Assembly (NCBI GenBank): GCA_945877315.1
Contig: CAMCRP010000002.1
Span: 1 to 64,000, forward strand
Length of the DNA stretch: 64,000 nucleotides
Direction of reading: 5' to 3'
Source: an uncultured Ruminococcus sp.
GTDB taxonomy: Bacteria; Bacillota; Clostridia; Oscillospirales; Ruminococcaceae
Each line of letters starts with the position of its first letter. Positions within the stretch are counted from its first letter, which is position 1. The notes beneath the pieces were generated by a model. The model worked only from the letters and a program-made list of their open reading frames with translations. It was not told where the DNA came from and did no database searches. Below, piece after piece: positions 10,096 to 57,949 of the stretch. Position numbers and translations under genes: made by a program.

Positions 10096-10210
10096 TAAGA
10101 AAATACTGATTAATGGGTGTTCCCCCGCCGAAGGCGGGGGAACACCCACCCTGATACGTCACTTAGGCAACAAGAAAAATTGAATTGTTGATTTAATCAG
10201 TAATTTCCTA
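10096..10210. repeat. MITE-like repeat, family C, copy 1
   Basis: About 115 bp flanked by TA, with imperfect terminal inverted repeats (TAAGAAAATACTGATTAA against TAGGAAATTACTGATTAA). It encloses a perfect GC hairpin (GGGTGTTCCCCCGCC / GGCGGGGGAACACCC). A related copy is at 59618-59727, sharing the hairpin, the ATACxTCACTxAGGxAACA segment and both ends. It abuts a family B element. The hairpin could end or stabilise transcripts. Confidence 0.75.
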
Positions 10211-10333
10211 ATACTAAACACCCATTAATCACGGGAATCTCTCGGCGTAAAAACCCATAAACGAAACGGTTTTTAACAGTTTTAAGCTTCTTTACGCCGA
10301 TTTCTTCTCCGTGATTTAAATGGTGTTTAATAT
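10211..10333. repeat. MITE-like repeat, family B, copy 1
   Basis: About 123 bp with ends ATACTAAACACCCATTAATC and GTGATTTAAATGGTGTTTAATAT and inner segments GAATCTCTCGGCGTAAAAA and TTTACGCCGATTTCTTCTC that can pair. Near-identical copies are at 35315, 40077 and 57808. It contains no gene; an open frame that crosses it (10197-10433) is an artefact of the repeat. Confidence 0.85.
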
Positions 10334-10432
10334 AAAGTATTATCCCAATAAGAAGTATCGCACGTTTAATCATATTTTGATTATAACATATTTCCGAAAT
10401 AATTTCAACTGTTTTTAGCAGGGAATATGCCA

Positions 10433-14525: not shown

Positions 14526-15386
14526 ATGGCTGAACAAGTTATCAAAAAGCAGCAAAAAAACTTTCTGCCCACTTTTCTTGCCTTCCTTAAATATTCCGTT
14601 CTTGTGATATCCTGCCTTGTGGTCTTTATTCCCCTTGTGGTCGTATTTTTAGGCTCATTCAAAAGCAATACTGAGTTCCTTTCCTCAAATGTTTTTGCAC
14701 TTCCCACTGAATTTGAATGGTCAAACTACAAGACCGCCTTTATTGACGGAAAGGTTCTTCTGGGACTGAAAAACACAGCGATACTTATCGTTGTATCCTG
14801 CACGGGAACAATACTCGTAGGTACAATGACAGCCTATGTTCTCCAGCGTTTCAATACCGTTATGGGAAAGGTTTTAAAGGCAGCCTTCCTTCTTGCCACA
14901 CTTTTCCCCGCAATTTCAATGCAGGTAACGGTTTACCGCATAATGAACGGCTTCCACCTTGTGGGAACAATGGCAGCTCCCATAATACTTTACATTGGTA
15001 CGGATATTGTTTCCATCTACATATTTATGCAGTTTCTGGACAACATCTCCTACTCTCTCGACGAAAGTGCAATTATTGACGGAGCAAATTATTTCACGGT
15101 TTTCTTCAAGATAATCCTTCCGCTGCTTCGTCCCGCTATTGCAACAGTTCTTATCATTAAGGTCATAGGCATTTACAACGATTTCTACACACCGCAGCTT
15201 TATATGCCCAGTGAAGAGCTTTCTGTGGTTTCCACATCGCTCTACCGCTTTATGGGTCCTTACGGAGCAAAGTGGGAGATCATCTTTGCGGGCATCGTTA
15301 TTTGTATTATTCCCGCACTTGTTATCTTCCTTGCACTCCAAAAGCAGATATATGCAGGCCTTGTAAACGGCTCTGTAAAAGAATAA
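14526..15386 (+). CDS. ABC sugar transporter permease (MalG-type)
   Basis: 286 residues; six predicted membrane spans, EAA loop at LDESAIIDGANYFTVFFKI and a C-terminal QKQIYAGLVNGSVKE tail typical of MalG-family permeases. It forms the channel with the preceding permease. The start follows GGAGGATAA, which overlaps the end of the upstream gene. Confidence 0.85.
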   Translation: MAEQVIKKQQKNFLPTFLAFLKYSVLVISCLVVFIPLVVVFLGSFKSNTEFLSSNVFALPTEFEWSNYKTAFIDGKVLLGLKNTAILIVVSCTGTILVGTMTAYVLQRFNTVMGKVLKAAFLLATLFPAISMQVTVYRIMNGFHLVGTMAAPIILYIGTDIVSIYIFMQFLDNISYSLDESAIIDGANYFTVFFKIILPLLRPAIATVLIIKVIGIYNDFYTPQLYMPSEELSVVSTSLYRFMGPYGAKWEIIFAGIVICIIPALVIFLALQKQIYAGLVNGSVKE

Positions 15387-15400
15387 ACGATATTATCAAA

Positions 15401-15444
15401 AAACAGCATCAAGGCGGTGAAATAATGAAGCCTTGGTGCTGTTT
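15401..15444 (+). terminator. Hairpin after the sugar importer operon
   Basis: AAACAGCATCAAGGC pairs with GCCTTGGTGCTGTTT (one mismatch) across a 14-nt loop. A short TTT rather than a long U tract follows, so termination may be partial and the downstream chemoreceptor may be co-transcribed. Confidence 0.5.
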
Positions 15445-15480
15445 GCAGTACAAGAATGATATCTCGAAAAGGAGGGTGTA

Positions 15481-15583
15481 ATACTAATTTCTAATCAAAG
15501 TATAGACAAAAAATCCGCACAAAACCCATATACGCAAGCTTTTGCACGGATTTTTTGTCAACTTTATGATAGGAAATTAGTAT
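15481..15583. repeat. MITE-like repeat, family A, copy 1 (between Shine-Dalgarno and start of chemoreceptor gene)
   Basis: 103 bp with ends ATACTAATTTC and GAAATTAGTAT and paired inner arms (GACAAAAAATCCG / CGGATTTTTTGTC), so almost the whole element can fold into one hairpin. The left end matches the IS630 end at 468. It lies between AAAAGGAGGGTG (15466-15478) and ATG 15590. Removing the element and one TA would put the ATG about 11 nt after the AGGAGGG. Confidence 0.85.
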
Positions 15584-15589
15584 AACGAA

Positions 15590-17566
15590 ATGAGAAACAA
15601 ATCTATTAAGAAACACATTATAGCAGTTTCTTTGATGATAGTTCTGATACCGATTCTGATAATAGGAATATTCAGTTGTTTATCAAATCAGTATTCCGCC
15701 ACTACCCTTGCTGCAAGATCCATTGAACAAGCTGCATATCTTGCGGCTCAGCGTGTGCAGTGGGAATTGGACAGCTACATTATTCTTACAAAGGAAACAG
15801 GCAGCAATGCTGAGCTTGCTAATGCAAATACCTCTGAAAAGCGCAGACAGGATATAGTCAATCTGAAGGTTTTTCAGTACGGAATGGAAAGTGGCGTTGC
15901 TATTAACAATGACGGAATGGGTACTAACGGAGTTGATTACAGCGAAAGTGATTTTTTTAAGAACGCTATGAATGGAAATACTACTGTTACCGAGCCGATA
16001 CTTGATAGTTCTTCAGGCAAAATGTCTGTTATTATTGCAGCTCCCATCTGGGATAAGGGCATTGCGGGCAAGAAAGCTGTTGGCTGTGTTTTCTTCGTTA
16101 CAAAAGAGGATTTCCTCAACGATATAGTTCGAGATCTTTCAGTCAGCGAAAACAGCACTGCATATGTTCTCGGTAAGACAGGTACGGTCATAGCCGATAT
16201 TGACAATGAAGTTGTTGCAGCTAAGCAGAATTATATTGATAAAGCTGATGAATATCCTAATTATTCGGAACTTATTGCCGCACACAGAAAAATGATATCC
16301 GGAGAACAGGGTGCTGAAACAATAAAGCTTAACGGCAGATCAACTATTATAGGATATGCTCCCATCAGCGAAACTGACGGTTGGTCTATCGGCGTATGTG
16401 CTCCTTCTTCCGACTTTTTATCTGTAACGTCTATCTGTATTATTATTACGATTATTCTTGTCATTATATCGGCAATAATTTCCGTATTTAATTCTGCAAA
16501 AATGGGTAAAGATGTTGGCGATCCTATTGCTCTGTGTACTGAAAGACTAAAGCTTCTTTCAGAAGGTGACCTTTCAAGCACCATTCCCGAAATAAAGACA
16601 GAAGATGAAACAAGGATCCTTGCGGACGCTACAGAGTGCCTGGTAAATGATATGAACAGCATTATCGGTGACATCGGAAGAATGCTAAGCTCTATGGCAA
16701 GCGGTGATTTCAATGTATGCTCCTCCTGTGAAGATGGAGTTTATAAGGGAGATTTTTCCATTCTTATCGAGTCTGTTAATGAAATAAACAAAAAGCTAAG
16801 CAACACAATTTCACAGATTAACATATCTGCCGATCAGGTGTCAAATGGTTCAGAACAGGTTTCGGGCGGTGCTCAAAGCCTTTCTTACGGAGCTATGAAA
16901 CAAGCTTCCTCTATTGAACAGCTTTCCTCTACCATACACACAATTTCCGACAAGGCAGCAGATACCGCCGAGCACTGCATTACCGGAAAACGTATTACCG
17001 AAGAATCTGCAGAATATATAGATGAAGCTGCTCAGTATATGTGCAAGCTTACTGAAGCTATGCAGGACATATCCGATACCTCGGGAGAGATCGGCAGGAT
17101 CATAAAGTCTATTGAAGAAATTGCATTCCAGACAAATATTCTGGCACTCAATGCTGCTGTCGAGGCTGCCAGAGCAGGATCATCAGGCAAGGGATTTGCA
17201 GTTGTAGCAGATGAGGTAAGGAACCTTGCGTCCAAAACGGCTGATGCAGCTCAGGAAACAGCAGTTCTCATAGAGCGTTCTATTGATGCGGTTAAAAACG
17301 GTACGGGTATTACAGCGCAGACTGCAAGAGCGGTTTCTGATGTGGAAAGCCGATTTAATGAGGTAAGGAGCATCGTTGCTGAGATAGCAGAGGCAAGCAC
17401 TGTTCAGACTCATATGATTTCTCAAGTTACTCAGGGTATAGAACAGATCGCCGATGTTATTCAGACAAATTCTGCAACAGCCGAGGAAAGTGCAGCCGCT
17501 TCCAAGGAGCTTTCCAATCAGGCTCTTATTCTGAAAAAAATGGTAGGCGGATTTAAACTAAGATAA
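15590..17566 (+). CDS. Methyl-accepting chemotaxis protein (Cache sensor)
   Basis: 658 residues. TM1 is at about 12-32, an extracellular double-Cache-type sensor at about 40-280 (with ESDFFKNAMNGNTTVTEPIL and WSIGVCAPSSDF), and TM2 at about 283-305, followed by HAMP and a cytoplasmic signalling domain. The conserved hairpin is at EIAFQTNILALNAAVEAARA with GFAVVADEVRNLA after it. It should report a small extracellular ligand to CheA/CheW. The location just after a sugar importer suggests a sugar attractant, but Cache sensors more often bind amino or organic acids. The native ribosome binding site is displaced by a MITE; AGGA at 15571-15574 is a poorly spaced alternative. Confidence 0.9.
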   Translation: MRNKSIKKHIIAVSLMIVLIPILIIGIFSCLSNQYSATTLAARSIEQAAYLAAQRVQWELDSYIILTKETGSNAELANANTSEKRRQDIVNLKVFQYGMESGVAINNDGMGTNGVDYSESDFFKNAMNGNTTVTEPILDSSSGKMSVIIAAPIWDKGIAGKKAVGCVFFVTKEDFLNDIVRDLSVSENSTAYVLGKTGTVIADIDNEVVAAKQNYIDKADEYPNYSELIAAHRKMISGEQGAETIKLNGRSTIIGYAPISETDGWSIGVCAPSSDFLSVTSICIIITIILVIISAIISVFNSAKMGKDVGDPIALCTERLKLLSEGDLSSTIPEIKTEDETRILADATECLVNDMNSIIGDIGRMLSSMASGDFNVCSSCEDGVYKGDFSILIESVNEINKKLSNTISQINISADQVSNGSEQVSGGAQSLSYGAMKQASSIEQLSSTIHTISDKAADTAEHCITGKRITEESAEYIDEAAQYMCKLTEAMQDISDTSGEIGRIIKSIEEIAFQTNILALNAAVEAARAGSSGKGFAVVADEVRNLASKTADAAQETAVLIERSIDAVKNGTGITAQTARAVSDVESRFNEVRSIVAEIAEASTVQTHMISQVTQGIEQIADVIQTNSATAEESAAASKELSNQALILKKMVGGFKLR

Positions 17567-35284: not shown

Positions 35285-35314
35285 AAAGAAAAAAATATCG
35301 GAATACAGGTGCTA

Positions 35315-35436
35315 ATACTATACACCCATTAATCACGGGAATCTCTCGGCGCAAAAAACCATAAACGCAAAACTCTTTTCAACAGTTTCGCTTTTTACGC
35401 CGATTTCTTCTCCGTGATTTAAATGGTGTTTAGTAT
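35315..35436. repeat. MITE-like repeat, family B, copy 2
   Basis: 122 bp from ATACTATACACCC to GGTGTTTAGTAT, with internal complementary arms (TCTCGGCGCAAAAAA / TTTTTACGCCGATTTC). Over 90 percent alike by eye to the copy at 40077. Confidence 0.88.
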
Positions 35437-35469
35437 AAAAATTAACAATAATCTGAGGGAGAAAATAAT

Positions 35470-39743: not shown

Positions 39744-39892
39744 TCATCTCTTCTCCATCAGCTTCTCATTCAAAGCTTGTAACCTATAATAAGCCTCATT
39801 GCAATTATTCTGAAACTTGTCGATTATATCTTGCGGAAAAACAAGAGCGTCTGCATATGAAAGGGGAGGTGGAATGCTTTGAGCAGAGAATT
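39744..39892 (-). pseudogene. C-terminal fragment of an unidentified gene, cut by a MITE
   Basis: A minus-strand frame of about 49 codons (KFSAQSIPPPLSYADALVF, then PQDIIDKFQNNCNEAYYRL and ALNEKLMEKR) ends at TGA 39744-39746. Composition is protein-like and there is no start. The frame begins exactly at the family A element at 39894. I cannot name the family; a mobile-element protein is possible because other MITE copies sit in Mob remnants. Confidence 0.45.
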
Positions 39893-39893
39893 T

Positions 39894-39995
39894 ATACTAA
39901 TAACCAATTAAAAAGTGAATAAAAAATCAAGCAAAAACTTGCGTATATGGTTTTTACGCAGATTTTTTGTCTATACTTTTATTGGTTATTAGTAT
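39894..39995. repeat. MITE-like repeat, family A, copy 2
   Basis: 102 bp from ATACTAATAACCAATTAAAA to TTTTATTGGTTATTAGTAT, with a terminal stem of over 20 bp and TA on both sides. The central segment ACTTGCGTATATGGTTTTTA matches the other copies in inverse orientation. A 73-codon plus-strand frame that ends in it (39701-39922) is judged spurious. Confidence 0.85.
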
Positions 39996-40076
39996 TACGC
40001 ATACAGACGGGAGTGCATTCCCTGCGTGTCTGGGGGAAAGGGAAAGGATAAACGAACCGCTGTTTTTTGATAACTA

Positions 40077-40198
40077 ATACTAAACACCCATTAATCACGG
40101 AAATCTCTTGGCGTAAAAATCCGTAAACGCAAAACTCTTTTCAACAGTTTCGCTTTTTACGCCGATTTCTTCTCCGTGATTTAAATGGTGTTTATTAT
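40077..40198. repeat. MITE-like repeat, family B, copy 3
   Basis: 122 bp, ATACTAAACACCCATTAATC to AAATGGTGTTTATTAT, closely matching the copy at 35315, with complementary inner arms. It lies just downstream of the LacI gene (40264, minus). The 39592-40263 gap contains only the metE control region, the gene fragment and the two MITEs. Confidence 0.88.
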
Positions 40199-40263
40199 AA
40201 CATGAATAGAAAAAGTTTTATAAAAAGAGCCGTGAGAATACCCCTTGAGATATATTTTTGAAA

Positions 40264-45016: not shown

Positions 45017-45047
45017 TTATGTGTTTCAGAACTACTCCGTCCGATTA

Positions 45048-45148
45048 ATACTAATAACCAATAAAAGTGTAGATAAAAATCTGTACAAAAACCATATACG
45101 CAAGTTTTTGCTTGATTTTTTATTCACTTTTTAATTGGTTTTTAGTAT
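45048..45148. repeat. MITE-like repeat, family A, copy 3
   Basis: 101 bp, ATACTAATAACCAATAAAAG to CTTTTTAATTGGTTTTTAGTAT. Shares the CATATACGCAAG core with the other copies. Directly followed by a MobC remnant. Confidence 0.85.
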
Positions 45149-45149
45149 A

Positions 45150-45263
45150 AGCAGAAGTTACGGCAATACCGCACAAACCATTGAAAAGCAGAAGGAATTC
45201 AAATATTTTTGTACTGTTATGCAGAATTATTTCTTTGAAATTTCGCCGACCTACATTTCGTAA
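45150..45263 (+). pseudogene. MobC-like remnant (last ~37 codons)
   Basis: The frame ends KEFKYFCTVMQNYFFEISPTYI-S and its DNA matches the end of the MobC remnant at 7613-7694 with few changes, both stopping at TTTCGTAA. There is no start. This is a second, deeper-eroded trace of the same mobilization module, at the edge of a family A MITE. Confidence 0.65.
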
Positions 45264-55269: not shown

Positions 55270-57809
55270 TGAACAGAGTGCTAAGCAAACGTATTTTTCG
55301 TGATTTAAAGAGCAATTTCCTGCGGTATCTTGCGCTTTTTCTGATGATAGTCATGGGAATGTACATAATTATTGCAGTGGTGGGAGCTGCGGAAACTATA
55401 ATAACAAGGACGGTCGAAACAGGCGAGAAAAACCATGTTGAGGACGGACAGTTTGCTGTTTTTACACAGCTTACGGCGGCGCAGGAAAAGGAGATAACCG
55501 ACAGGGGAGTTACCCTTGAAAGGATATTTTCCTTTGATGCCCAAATGTCCGATAATTCCGTGCTGAGAGTTTTTAAGGTGCGTGAAGAGGTTGACCTTAT
55601 TGATACGGACGAGGGCAGAGCACCCGAAAAATCGGGAGAGATATTCCTTGAAAAGCGTTATTGTCAAGAACATGAAATATCCGTTGGAGATACGTTGAAA
55701 ATAGGCGAAAAAGTCTTTGTCGTAACGGGCATTGGCACAGTTCCCGATTATGACGCTCCCACAAAAAAATTCTCCGACAGTTCGGTGGACAGCTCACTTT
55801 TCGGAGTTGGTTTTGTCGTTTCCGAAGATTATGAAGCACTGAAAAGTCTTGGAAAAACCGAGGATATTCGCTATGCTTATCTGCTAAACGGAGAAATTAC
55901 CCACGATGAATTAAAGGATATTATCAAGGATTTTGAGTTTGACTATAACGATATTGAGGACGAATATTTCCGTGAAATGCTTGATGATACCCTCGGCAGA
56001 AAAGAGGACATACAGGACGGTATAAATGAACTTTATGACGGTTCAAAGGAGCTTGCGGACGGACTTTCCGAACTTGACAAAATGAGTGTTGCTCTTGACG
56101 GATTGAAAGCCTATTCCGACGGAGTTACGGAATATACAAACGGGGTTCACGAAGCAGCAGATGGCGCCGCCGAACTGGCAGACGGAGTAAAGGAGCTGAA
56201 AACCGAAACGGACGATATGCTTGACGAGCTTTTCACCGTTGACATCGACAATCTTACCGAGTTTGTGGAAGCTGCGGATAATCCCCGAATTGCCGCAGCC
56301 GCAGCCGATATGCAGATGAACAAAAGCGTTGGTCTGTTTGCGGGTGTGATAATTATGGTGCTGTTCACATACGTTATTTCCGTATTTGTCATTCATCAGA
56401 TACAGCGTGAATCAAGTGTTATCGGCGCATTGTATGCTCTCGGTGCAAAAAAGAAGGATCTAATCGGTCATTATATCGCATTGCCAACTATAATAAGCTT
56501 TGCAGGCGGTCTTGCAGGTTCGGCACTTGGTTTCAGCAAATTCGGTATTGATTCTCAAATGGCTGACACTTACTATTATTTCTCCGTGCCTGTATTTGAG
56601 CCTGTATATCCGTTATATCTTATAATTTACGCTGTGGTAATGCCGCCCGTTATTTCGGCAATAGTAAACTATCTTGTAATAAACAAGCGACTCTCACGGA
56701 CGGCACTTTCACTTATCAAAAACGAGCAGAAAACAGATTTCCGTACAGGAATCGACTTAAAGAAAATGGGCTTCCTGCGCCGTTTTCAGATAAGACAGAT
56801 GCTTCGTGAAGCGAGAACGGGTCTTACCGTAATTTTCGGAATGCTCATATCGCTTATTATATTTATGCTTGGTATCAACTGCTATGTGCTGTGTACAAAT
56901 ATAAAAGCTGACACGGTGCGTGACACAAAATTTGAGTATATGTATGTTTTAAAATATCCCGAGGAAACGCCGCCCGAAAATTCCGAAGCTTACTATGTTG
57001 AGTCGTTGTCGAAAACGGCATTCGATTACACTCTTGACATAAGCGTTATCGGTGTTGACGAAAACGAGAAATATTACGGCGTATCTCCCGAAAAGGGCAA
57101 AAGCAAGATAACCGCAAGCACATCTGCTGCGCAGAAATATGGTCTGAAAAAGGGTGATAAGCTGATACTGACCGACAGTGCCACCGATATGGACTACGCA
57201 TTTACAATAACCGACATTGCCGATTATTCCGCAGGACTTTCGGTGTTTATGGACATTGACAGTATGCGTGAGCTATTCGGGCAGGAGGACGACTATTACA
57301 ATATGCTCCTTTCGGATACGGCACTTGACATTGACGAGGGACGCTTGTACTCGGTAACGTCACGAAGCGACATTGAACGCTCCTCGGCAGTTTTTTCCGA
57401 CCTGATGATGCCCATGGTTATAATGATGACTGTTGTTTCTATAATCATTTTCTGCGTGGTGATGTATCTTATGCTGAATGTGATGATAGAACGTGCGAGC
57501 TTTGGTATTTCTCTTGTAAAGATATTCGGCTACCGCACAAATGAGGTAAGAAAGCTGTATCTGAACGGAAATACCGCAGTTGTTGCAGTAGGTGCGCTTA
57601 TCGCCATACCCGTTTCCAAGCTGTTTATGGACACGATCTATCCCTATATGATATCCAACATTGCCTGCGGAATGAATCTGCATTTTGAGTGGTATATGTA
57701 TTCTATGATTTATGTTGGAATCATGCTCATATATTTTGCGGTGAATGGTATGCTTACTGCAGAGCTGAAAAAGATCACTCCTGCGGAGGTGCTGAAAAAC
57801 AGGGAATAA
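55269..57809 (+). CDS. FtsX-type ABC permease with heptad-repeat insert
   Basis: 846 residues. TM1 at about 18-40, an extracytoplasmic domain (about 45-240), then a coiled-coil region with x-L-x-x-G heptads (about 240-315: DGSKELADGLSELD, DGAAELADGVKEL) like YhgE proteins. Three TM helices (about 355-480), TM at about 525, a second extracytoplasmic domain (about 550-705) and three last TMs follow. FtsX domains (about 360-475 and 720-835). Such proteins in Clostridia export peptides or extract lipids; the substrate is unknown. The stop TAA is formed where a family B MITE begins. Confidence 0.85.
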   Translation: MNRVLSKRIFRDLKSNFLRYLALFLMIVMGMYIIIAVVGAAETIITRTVETGEKNHVEDGQFAVFTQLTAAQEKEITDRGVTLERIFSFDAQMSDNSVLRVFKVREEVDLIDTDEGRAPEKSGEIFLEKRYCQEHEISVGDTLKIGEKVFVVTGIGTVPDYDAPTKKFSDSSVDSSLFGVGFVVSEDYEALKSLGKTEDIRYAYLLNGEITHDELKDIIKDFEFDYNDIEDEYFREMLDDTLGRKEDIQDGINELYDGSKELADGLSELDKMSVALDGLKAYSDGVTEYTNGVHEAADGAAELADGVKELKTETDDMLDELFTVDIDNLTEFVEAADNPRIAAAAADMQMNKSVGLFAGVIIMVLFTYVISVFVIHQIQRESSVIGALYALGAKKKDLIGHYIALPTIISFAGGLAGSALGFSKFGIDSQMADTYYYFSVPVFEPVYPLYLIIYAVVMPPVISAIVNYLVINKRLSRTALSLIKNEQKTDFRTGIDLKKMGFLRRFQIRQMLREARTGLTVIFGMLISLIIFMLGINCYVLCTNIKADTVRDTKFEYMYVLKYPEETPPENSEAYYVESLSKTAFDYTLDISVIGVDENEKYYGVSPEKGKSKITASTSAAQKYGLKKGDKLILTDSATDMDYAFTITDIADYSAGLSVFMDIDSMRELFGQEDDYYNMLLSDTALDIDEGRLYSVTSRSDIERSSAVFSDLMMPMVIMMTVVSIIIFCVVMYLMLNVMIERASFGISLVKIFGYRTNEVRKLYLNGNTAVVAVGALIAIPVSKLFMDTIYPYMISNIACGMNLHFEWYMYSMIYVGIMLIYFAVNGMLTAELKKITPAEVLKNRE

Positions 57810-57926
57810 CACTAAACACCCATTATTTACGGGGATCTCTCGAAAAAAACATAAACGCAAAACCCTTTTCAACAGTTTCACTTTTTACGGCGATTTCTTC
57901 TCCATAATTCTAATGGTGTTTAGTAT
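57808..57926. repeat. MITE-like repeat, family B, copy 4
   Basis: 119 bp, AACACTAAACACCCATTA to TAATGGTGTTTAGTAT, more diverged than the other copies (GGCG arm altered, ATAATTC for GTGATTT). It forms the stop codon of the ABC permease and lies 24 bp before a gene fragment. Confidence 0.82.
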
Positions 57927-57949
57927 AACTCAAATTACACTCAAAGTAA

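What the first reader, a model, noticed from the sequence alone, without database searches (positions are those of the whole stretch)
15466..15592. MITE inserted between Shine-Dalgarno and start codon of a chemoreceptor gene
AAAAGGAGGGTG ends at 15478, a 103-bp hairpin-forming MITE occupies 15481-15583, and the ATG is at 15590. Taking out the element and one TA restores normal spacing. In mRNA the MITE can fold on itself, so it may either silence translation or bring the ribosome binding site and start codon together across a stem (ribosome bypass). Fixation of such an insertion with an intact 658-codon ORF is unexpected if it is purely disruptive.
Basis: partly seen in the sequence, partly recalled or inferred. 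Interest (0 to 1): 0.75.

Follow-up and report, generated by a model that had tools for sequence, protein, structure and literature searches.

The report
Young mobile hairpin splits chemoreceptor ribosome-binding site
A 101-base mobile DNA hairpin that occurs in dozens of copies in this gut bacterium has recently jumped between the ribosome-binding site and the start codon of a chemoreceptor gene, which most likely turns the gene down, although the hairpin could in principle loop out and keep the two signals together.

Summary
A 101-bp palindromic MITE (15482-15582) with 3-bp TAA target duplications (15479-15481, 15583-15585) lies between AGGAGG (15470-15475) and ATG 15590 of a dCache/HAMP/MCP-signal chemoreceptor. 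Paralogous empty sites, one in the same genome, prove the ends and the TWA duplication. Removing the element and one TAA gives a normal 10-nt SD-ATG gap; it is now 114 nt. Homologues carry an SD beside the start and no element, so it is not an ancestral leader. The family has dozens of copies in this genome, its congener and one further genus of the same family. Of 125 copies examined, only this one splits an SD from its start. It is 100% identical to two other copies in the genome and to one in a sister species, so it is young. That explains the intact ORF without any bypass. Most likely it is a recent, expression-lowering insertion (SD displaced; long duplex a probable RNase III substrate). 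A T4 gene-25-like 'split RBS', with the hairpin looped out to 11 nt, is geometrically possible but has no supporting evidence. No strain lacking the insertion was available, no expression data exist, and no transposase partner was found.

The parts
15470..15475 (+). Shine-Dalgarno core AGGAGG (within AAAAGGAGGGTG), displaced from its start codon
   Evidence: sequence; AAAGGAGG occurs only 3 times in the window on both strands, 2 of them followed by ATG within 3-13 nt
15479..15481 (+). left copy of target-site duplication TAA
   Evidence: TAA/TAA in 89 and TTA/TTA in 3 of 131 copies; single TAA or TTA in empty sites
15482..15582 (+). 101-bp MITE, TACTAATTTC...GAAATTAGTA, folding into one long hairpin
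   Evidence: 100% identical to copies L002, L003 and L050
15583..15585 (+). right copy of target-site duplication TAA
15590..17566 (+). intact 658-codon chemoreceptor gene (dCache_1, HAMP, MCPsignal)
   Evidence: 69% identical to L297 over 639 aa
15510..15560 (+). inner stem of the MITE: UCCG-CA-CAAAA / UUUUG-CA-CGGA followed by U6, weakly terminator-like in both directions
   Evidence: fold -4.7 kcal/mol for the stem before the U run; no terminator called
15555..15583 (+). promoter-like match TTGTCA-17-TAGTAT in the right half of the MITE (consensus match only); start point would fall at about the ATG
14526..15386 (+). upstream ABC sugar-transporter permease gene, probably co-transcribed
   Evidence: orthologues L074, L075 are not followed by a chemoreceptor

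Best explanation
A recently mobile, non-autonomous MITE with TWA (TAA/TTA) 3-bp target duplication inserted at the TAA between the SD and the ATG of a chemoreceptor gene. Shown: exact insertion, family membership, youth of the copy, normal 10-nt spacing before insertion, SD-to-ATG distance now 114 nt. Inferred: initiation from the old SD is largely lost and the ~40-bp duplex in the leader is a probable RNase III substrate, so chemoreceptor expression is lowered. The ORF is intact because the insertion is too recent to have decayed, and loss of one of many chemoreceptors is tolerable.
For: Copy is 100% identical to L002, L003 (same genome) and L050 (congener), while the family diverges to about 77%. 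Empty sites give exact ends and TWA duplication: L004/L145 in this genome, L065/L126, L132/L148, L160/L126, L151/L126. Of 125 copies only this one splits SD from start; only 2 lie inside predicted ORFs; other near-start copies with a clear SD keep it between element and ATG. Homologue leaders have the SD beside the ATG and no MITE. Three close relatives of this chemoreceptor including itself, and 26 first-look candidates, in the genome. RNase III cutting of MITE-bearing transcripts is known for Correia elements (PMC10969869).
Against: No expression data. A stable hairpin could bridge SD and ATG (T4 genes 25 and 38, PMC3014915). The element carries promoter-like hexamers. An SD-less AU-rich leader may still allow weak initiation.
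Confidence: 0.62

Rival explanations
1. Split ribosome-binding site: the MITE hairpin loops out in mRNA so that the SD and the AUG are effectively 11 nt apart (5 nt if G15478-C15586 also pair) and the 30S subunit initiates across the stem, as in T4 genes 25 and 38.
For: Hairpin closes at A15481-U15583 with pair probability 0.92 and G15478-C15586 0.71; outer stem covaries across the family; SD and AUG lie outside the stem; T4 gene 25 goes from 27 to 11 nt and gene 38 from 22 to 5 nt (PMC3014915).
Against: T4 intervening structures are about 16 nt, this one is about 103 nt and -34 kcal/mol; a duplex this long is a likely RNase III target; the covariation is family-wide and explained by the needs of transposition; no second copy in the family uses the arrangement.
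Confidence: 0.18
2. The MITE supplies an outward promoter (TTGTCA-17-TAGTAT, or TTTGCA-18-TATGAT) and the chemoreceptor is now read from a leaderless or very short-leader transcript.
For: Promoter-like matches on the + strand at 15541-15570 and 15555-15583; no + strand match was found between the permease stop and the MITE. Correia and other MITEs are known to carry promoters (PMC10969869).
Against: Only 9 of 12 consensus positions; TAGTAT is simply the terminal repeat present in all copies; the transcript would lack an SD; leaderless translation is inefficient in Firmicutes (general knowledge).
Confidence: 0.1
3. The element acts mainly as a transcription terminator or attenuator between the ABC operon and the chemoreceptor.
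For: Inner stem ends in a U6 run and is symmetric; convergent gene pairs hold 38 of the copies against 15 divergent.
Against: Stem before the U run only -4.7 kcal/mol with a 15-nt loop; no terminator called.
Confidence: 0.06
4. Assembly chimera joining two different MITE loci.
For: The element is a repeat and nearly all copies are flanked by TAA, so the duplication alone does not prove contiguity; the assembly is in 138 contigs.
Against: Joined flanks give a strong SD exactly 10 nt from the ATG of an intact gene; the repeat is only 101 bp, shorter than common read lengths.
Confidence: 0.04

Closest known systems
Prokaryotic MITEs such as Correia elements (Neisseria), ERIC, and RUP/BOX/SPRITE (Streptococcus pneumoniae)
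   Same: short non-coding palindrome, terminal inverted repeats, short target duplication, dozens of copies, mostly intergenic, nested into one another and into other repeats, able to affect neighbouring mRNA
   Different: TWA 3-bp duplication and TACTAAT ends; partner transposase not found here; this copy lies between SD and start codon, a position not mentioned in the review read (PMC10969869, searched by term only)
T4 gene 25 and gene 38 split ribosome-binding sites
   Same: SD and AUG separated by a hairpin whose looping-out gives 5-11 nt spacing
   Different: T4 spacing 22-27 nt with small hairpins, tested and phylogenetically kept; here 114 nt, a transposon insertion, untested, single case
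IS5-type elements of the IS1031/ISL2 groups (and eukaryotic PIF/Harbinger) with TNA/TWA 3-bp duplications (from general knowledge)
   Same: 3-bp TWA target duplication
   Different: no transposase with these ends found; DDE_Tnp_4 absent; the full-length DDE_Tnp_1 copies present look like ISAs1-type and lack TACTAA ends

Membership tests
MITE | short, non-coding, terminal inverted repeats | tested here: met
   101 bp, no protein-coding gene, 47-nt arms 79% complementary; consensus stem 98% paired in 42 copies
MITE | multicopy and dispersed | tested here: met
   31 strong or full-length copies in own genome; 97, 82 and 143 model matches in three genomes, both strands counted
MITE | target-site duplication shown by empty sites | tested here: met
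   five filled/empty pairs, single TAA or TTA in the empty site
MITE | autonomous partner with the same ends | tested here: inconclusive
   two transposase families and an end pattern searched; no partner with TACTAAT ends found
T4-type split RBS | strong SD too far from AUG, brought to 5-11 nt by an intervening stem | tested here: met
   114 nt, 11 nt (or 5) when looped out, in predicted structure only
T4-type split RBS | arrangement conserved among relatives | tested here: not met
   homologue leaders lack it; 1 of 125 MITE copies
T4-type split RBS | stem needed for translation (mutational test) | not testable with these tools
   needs reporter assays
IS5-group derivative | TWA or TNA 3-bp duplication | tested here: met
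   89 TAA/TAA and 3 TTA/TTA of 131 copies
IS5-group derivative | IS5-type transposase with the same ends | tested here: not met
   none found in the families searched; other transposase families not searched

The most novel reading that the evidence does not exclude
A transposon-derived 101-nt hairpin has been accommodated as a split ribosome-binding site: 30S subunits initiate across it, so that an insertion between SD and AUG preserves expression, making hairpin MITEs intrinsically tolerable in this position.
Probability: 0.14. Interest if true: 0.75.

Novelty: new member of a known kind. Interest (0 to 1): 0.33.

Why it matters
If the gene is silenced, this is one more transposon insertion caught young, useful mainly as a natural test of what an SD-AUG separation costs. 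If it is still translated, it would show that a 30S subunit can initiate across a hairpin several times longer than the T4 examples, and would give a reason why self-folding MITEs are less harmful than other insertions.

Tried and rejected
(1) Ancestral leader: rejected, homologues lack the element. (2) A second SD-MITE-ATG case in L161: rejected; the ORF is antisense to a Clp-type ATPase gene and the G-rich stretch is half of that gene's apparent terminator hairpin. (3) L064: the real start has its own SD further down. (4) Direct empty site at this locus: G001 and G003 carry the ABC permease at 86% and 82% identity but no chemoreceptor follows it, so they cannot serve. (5) Named relatives by the related-loci scan of genome contigs: nothing. 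(6) Autonomous partner: DDE_Tnp_1 and DDE_Tnp_4 families and an end pattern, none fits; a longer repeat sharing the TACTAAT end runs to contig ends in G001 (L169, L170) and is a different, apparently non-coding repeat. (7) Rfam: no hits at gathering thresholds. (8) Papers describing a MITE between SD and start codon: none found in the held library. (9) New SD in the element's right arm: the nearest, AGGA at 15571-15574, is 15 nt from the ATG, too far. (10) Chemoreceptor homologues in nine further genomes holding the end motif: at most 37% identical.

Full report
What is there. In the + strand leader of a 658-codon ORF (15590-17566) the sequence reads AAAAGGAGGGTG-TAA-[TACTAATTTC...GAAATTAGTA]-TAA-CGAA-ATG. 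The bracketed element is 101 bp (15482-15582), a near-complete palindrome. A 181-nt stretch around it folds at -42.1 kcal/mol, z -5.8, no shuffle of 200 doing as well. The ORF is a chemoreceptor with dCache_1 and MCPsignal domains over their cut-offs and a HAMP match just under its cut-off, lying 203 bp after an ABC sugar-transporter permease gene.

It is a mobile element. The same sequence occurs all over the genome (31 strong or full-length matches on 138 contigs), in the one congener held (G001) and in a further genus of the family (G003). A covariance model built from 42 copies finds 97, 82 and 143 matches in the three genomes, counting both strands of the palindrome. Among 131 full copies with flanks, 89 have TAA on both sides and 3 have TTA on both sides. 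Five filled/empty pairs, using repeats into which the element has jumped, show flanks with a single TAA or TTA and no element: L004 against L145 within this very genome, and L065/L126, L132/L148, L160/L126, L151/L126 in G003. So the element runs from TACT to AGTA and duplicates a 3-bp TWA target. The outer stem is kept by paired changes across the family (7 pairs with changes on both sides, shuffled mean 3.5; 98.3% of cells paired), as expected for terminal inverted repeats that transposition needs.

The insertion splits a ribosome-binding site. Without the element and one TAA the gap from AGGAGG to ATG is 10 nt; with it, 114 nt. AAAGGAGG occurs three times in the window on both strands, and two of these are followed by ATG within 3-13 nt. 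The start codon is supported by homologues: the closest found in 397 family genomes (L297, 69% identical over 639 aa) begins MNPIKSIKKHIII against MRNKSIKKHIIAV here. It and the other related leaders generally place a purine-rich SD directly before the ATG, with no MITE. So the arrangement is derived, not an ancestral leader. The orthologous permease genes in G001 and G003 are not followed by a chemoreceptor, so a direct empty site at this locus could not be obtained.

It is young and alone. The element here is 100% identical to two other copies in the genome and to one in the congener, while family members diverge to about 77%. Among 125 copies with distinct flanks, 38 lie between convergent genes, 60 between tandem genes, 15 between divergent genes, 10 have no ORF called on one side, and only 2 lie inside a predicted ORF (my own crude ORF caller, not a trained gene finder). 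Copies close to a start codon with a recognisable SD keep it between element and ATG (for example L002, L009, L117, L118). Only the window copy separates SD and ATG; the one look-alike (L161) is an element inside an apparent terminator hairpin. An intact ORF behind so recent an insertion therefore needs no special explanation, which removes the main argument for bypass.

How it most likely works. The old SD is too far away to direct initiation at the ATG, no new SD lies at a usable distance, and the transcript carries a hairpin of about 40 bp with small bulges in its leader, the kind of structure RNase III cuts in Correia-bearing transcripts (PMC10969869). Lowered chemoreceptor synthesis is the simplest expectation (inferred, not shown). 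The genome has other chemoreceptors (26 first-look candidates), so the loss is likely tolerable.

The bypass idea. Both signals are outside the stem. The hairpin closes at A15481-U15583 with probability 0.92 and at G15478-C15586 with 0.71, leaving 11 or 5 nt between SD and AUG. Phage T4 genes 25 and 38 work this way (27 to 11 and 22 to 5 nt; PMC3014915). It differs in scale (about 103 nt folded out), in being a fresh insertion, and in having no comparative support. I give it about one chance in six.

Other readings. Promoter-like hexamers in the right half of the element would start transcription at or just before the ATG. The inner stem is a poor terminator (-4.7 kcal/mol). A chimeric contig is unlikely because joining the flanks gives a normal ribosome-binding site.

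Where it comes from. The window's genome is thus probably a gut Oscillospiraceae. No transposase with matching ends was found.

Noticed in passing
window 39891-39998 (-) and 45045-45151 (+): Two further full copies of the same MITE family, of an older subfamily.
   Followed up: partly
window 35312-35439, 57806-57929, 10208-10336, 40074-40201: Weaker model matches of about 128 bp, probably a related second palindromic repeat family.
   Followed up: no
L065, L132, L160, L151 (G003); L161 near 1490-1630: Several copies sit at TWA in the loop of other palindromes, including other MITEs and the apparent terminator of a Clp-type ATPase gene.
   Followed up: partly
all copies: Target duplication is TAA in the element's own orientation in 89 copies against TTA in 3, an unexplained orientation bias for a near-symmetric element.
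   Followed up: no
L006, L007, L010, L012-L015: Subfamily with a 13-bp insertion (AATCARAGATTTC) in the left arm only, itself near-identical among copies, so asymmetric derivatives also spread.
   Followed up: no
L049 about 1348-1471 versus L045: A different palindromic insertion of about 124 bp lies in the leader of another chemoreceptor gene in this genome; the congener's orthologue lacks it.
   Followed up: partly
window 15400-15445: A second stable hairpin (AACAGCATCAAGGC / GCCTTGGTGCTGTTT) between the permease stop and the SD, with only a short U run.
   Followed up: no
L169, L170 (G001) and homologous loci in G000: A GC-rich repeat of 270 bp or more sharing the TAATACTAATTT end, at contig ends, many copies in G000 and G001, no obvious gene.
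   Followed up: partly
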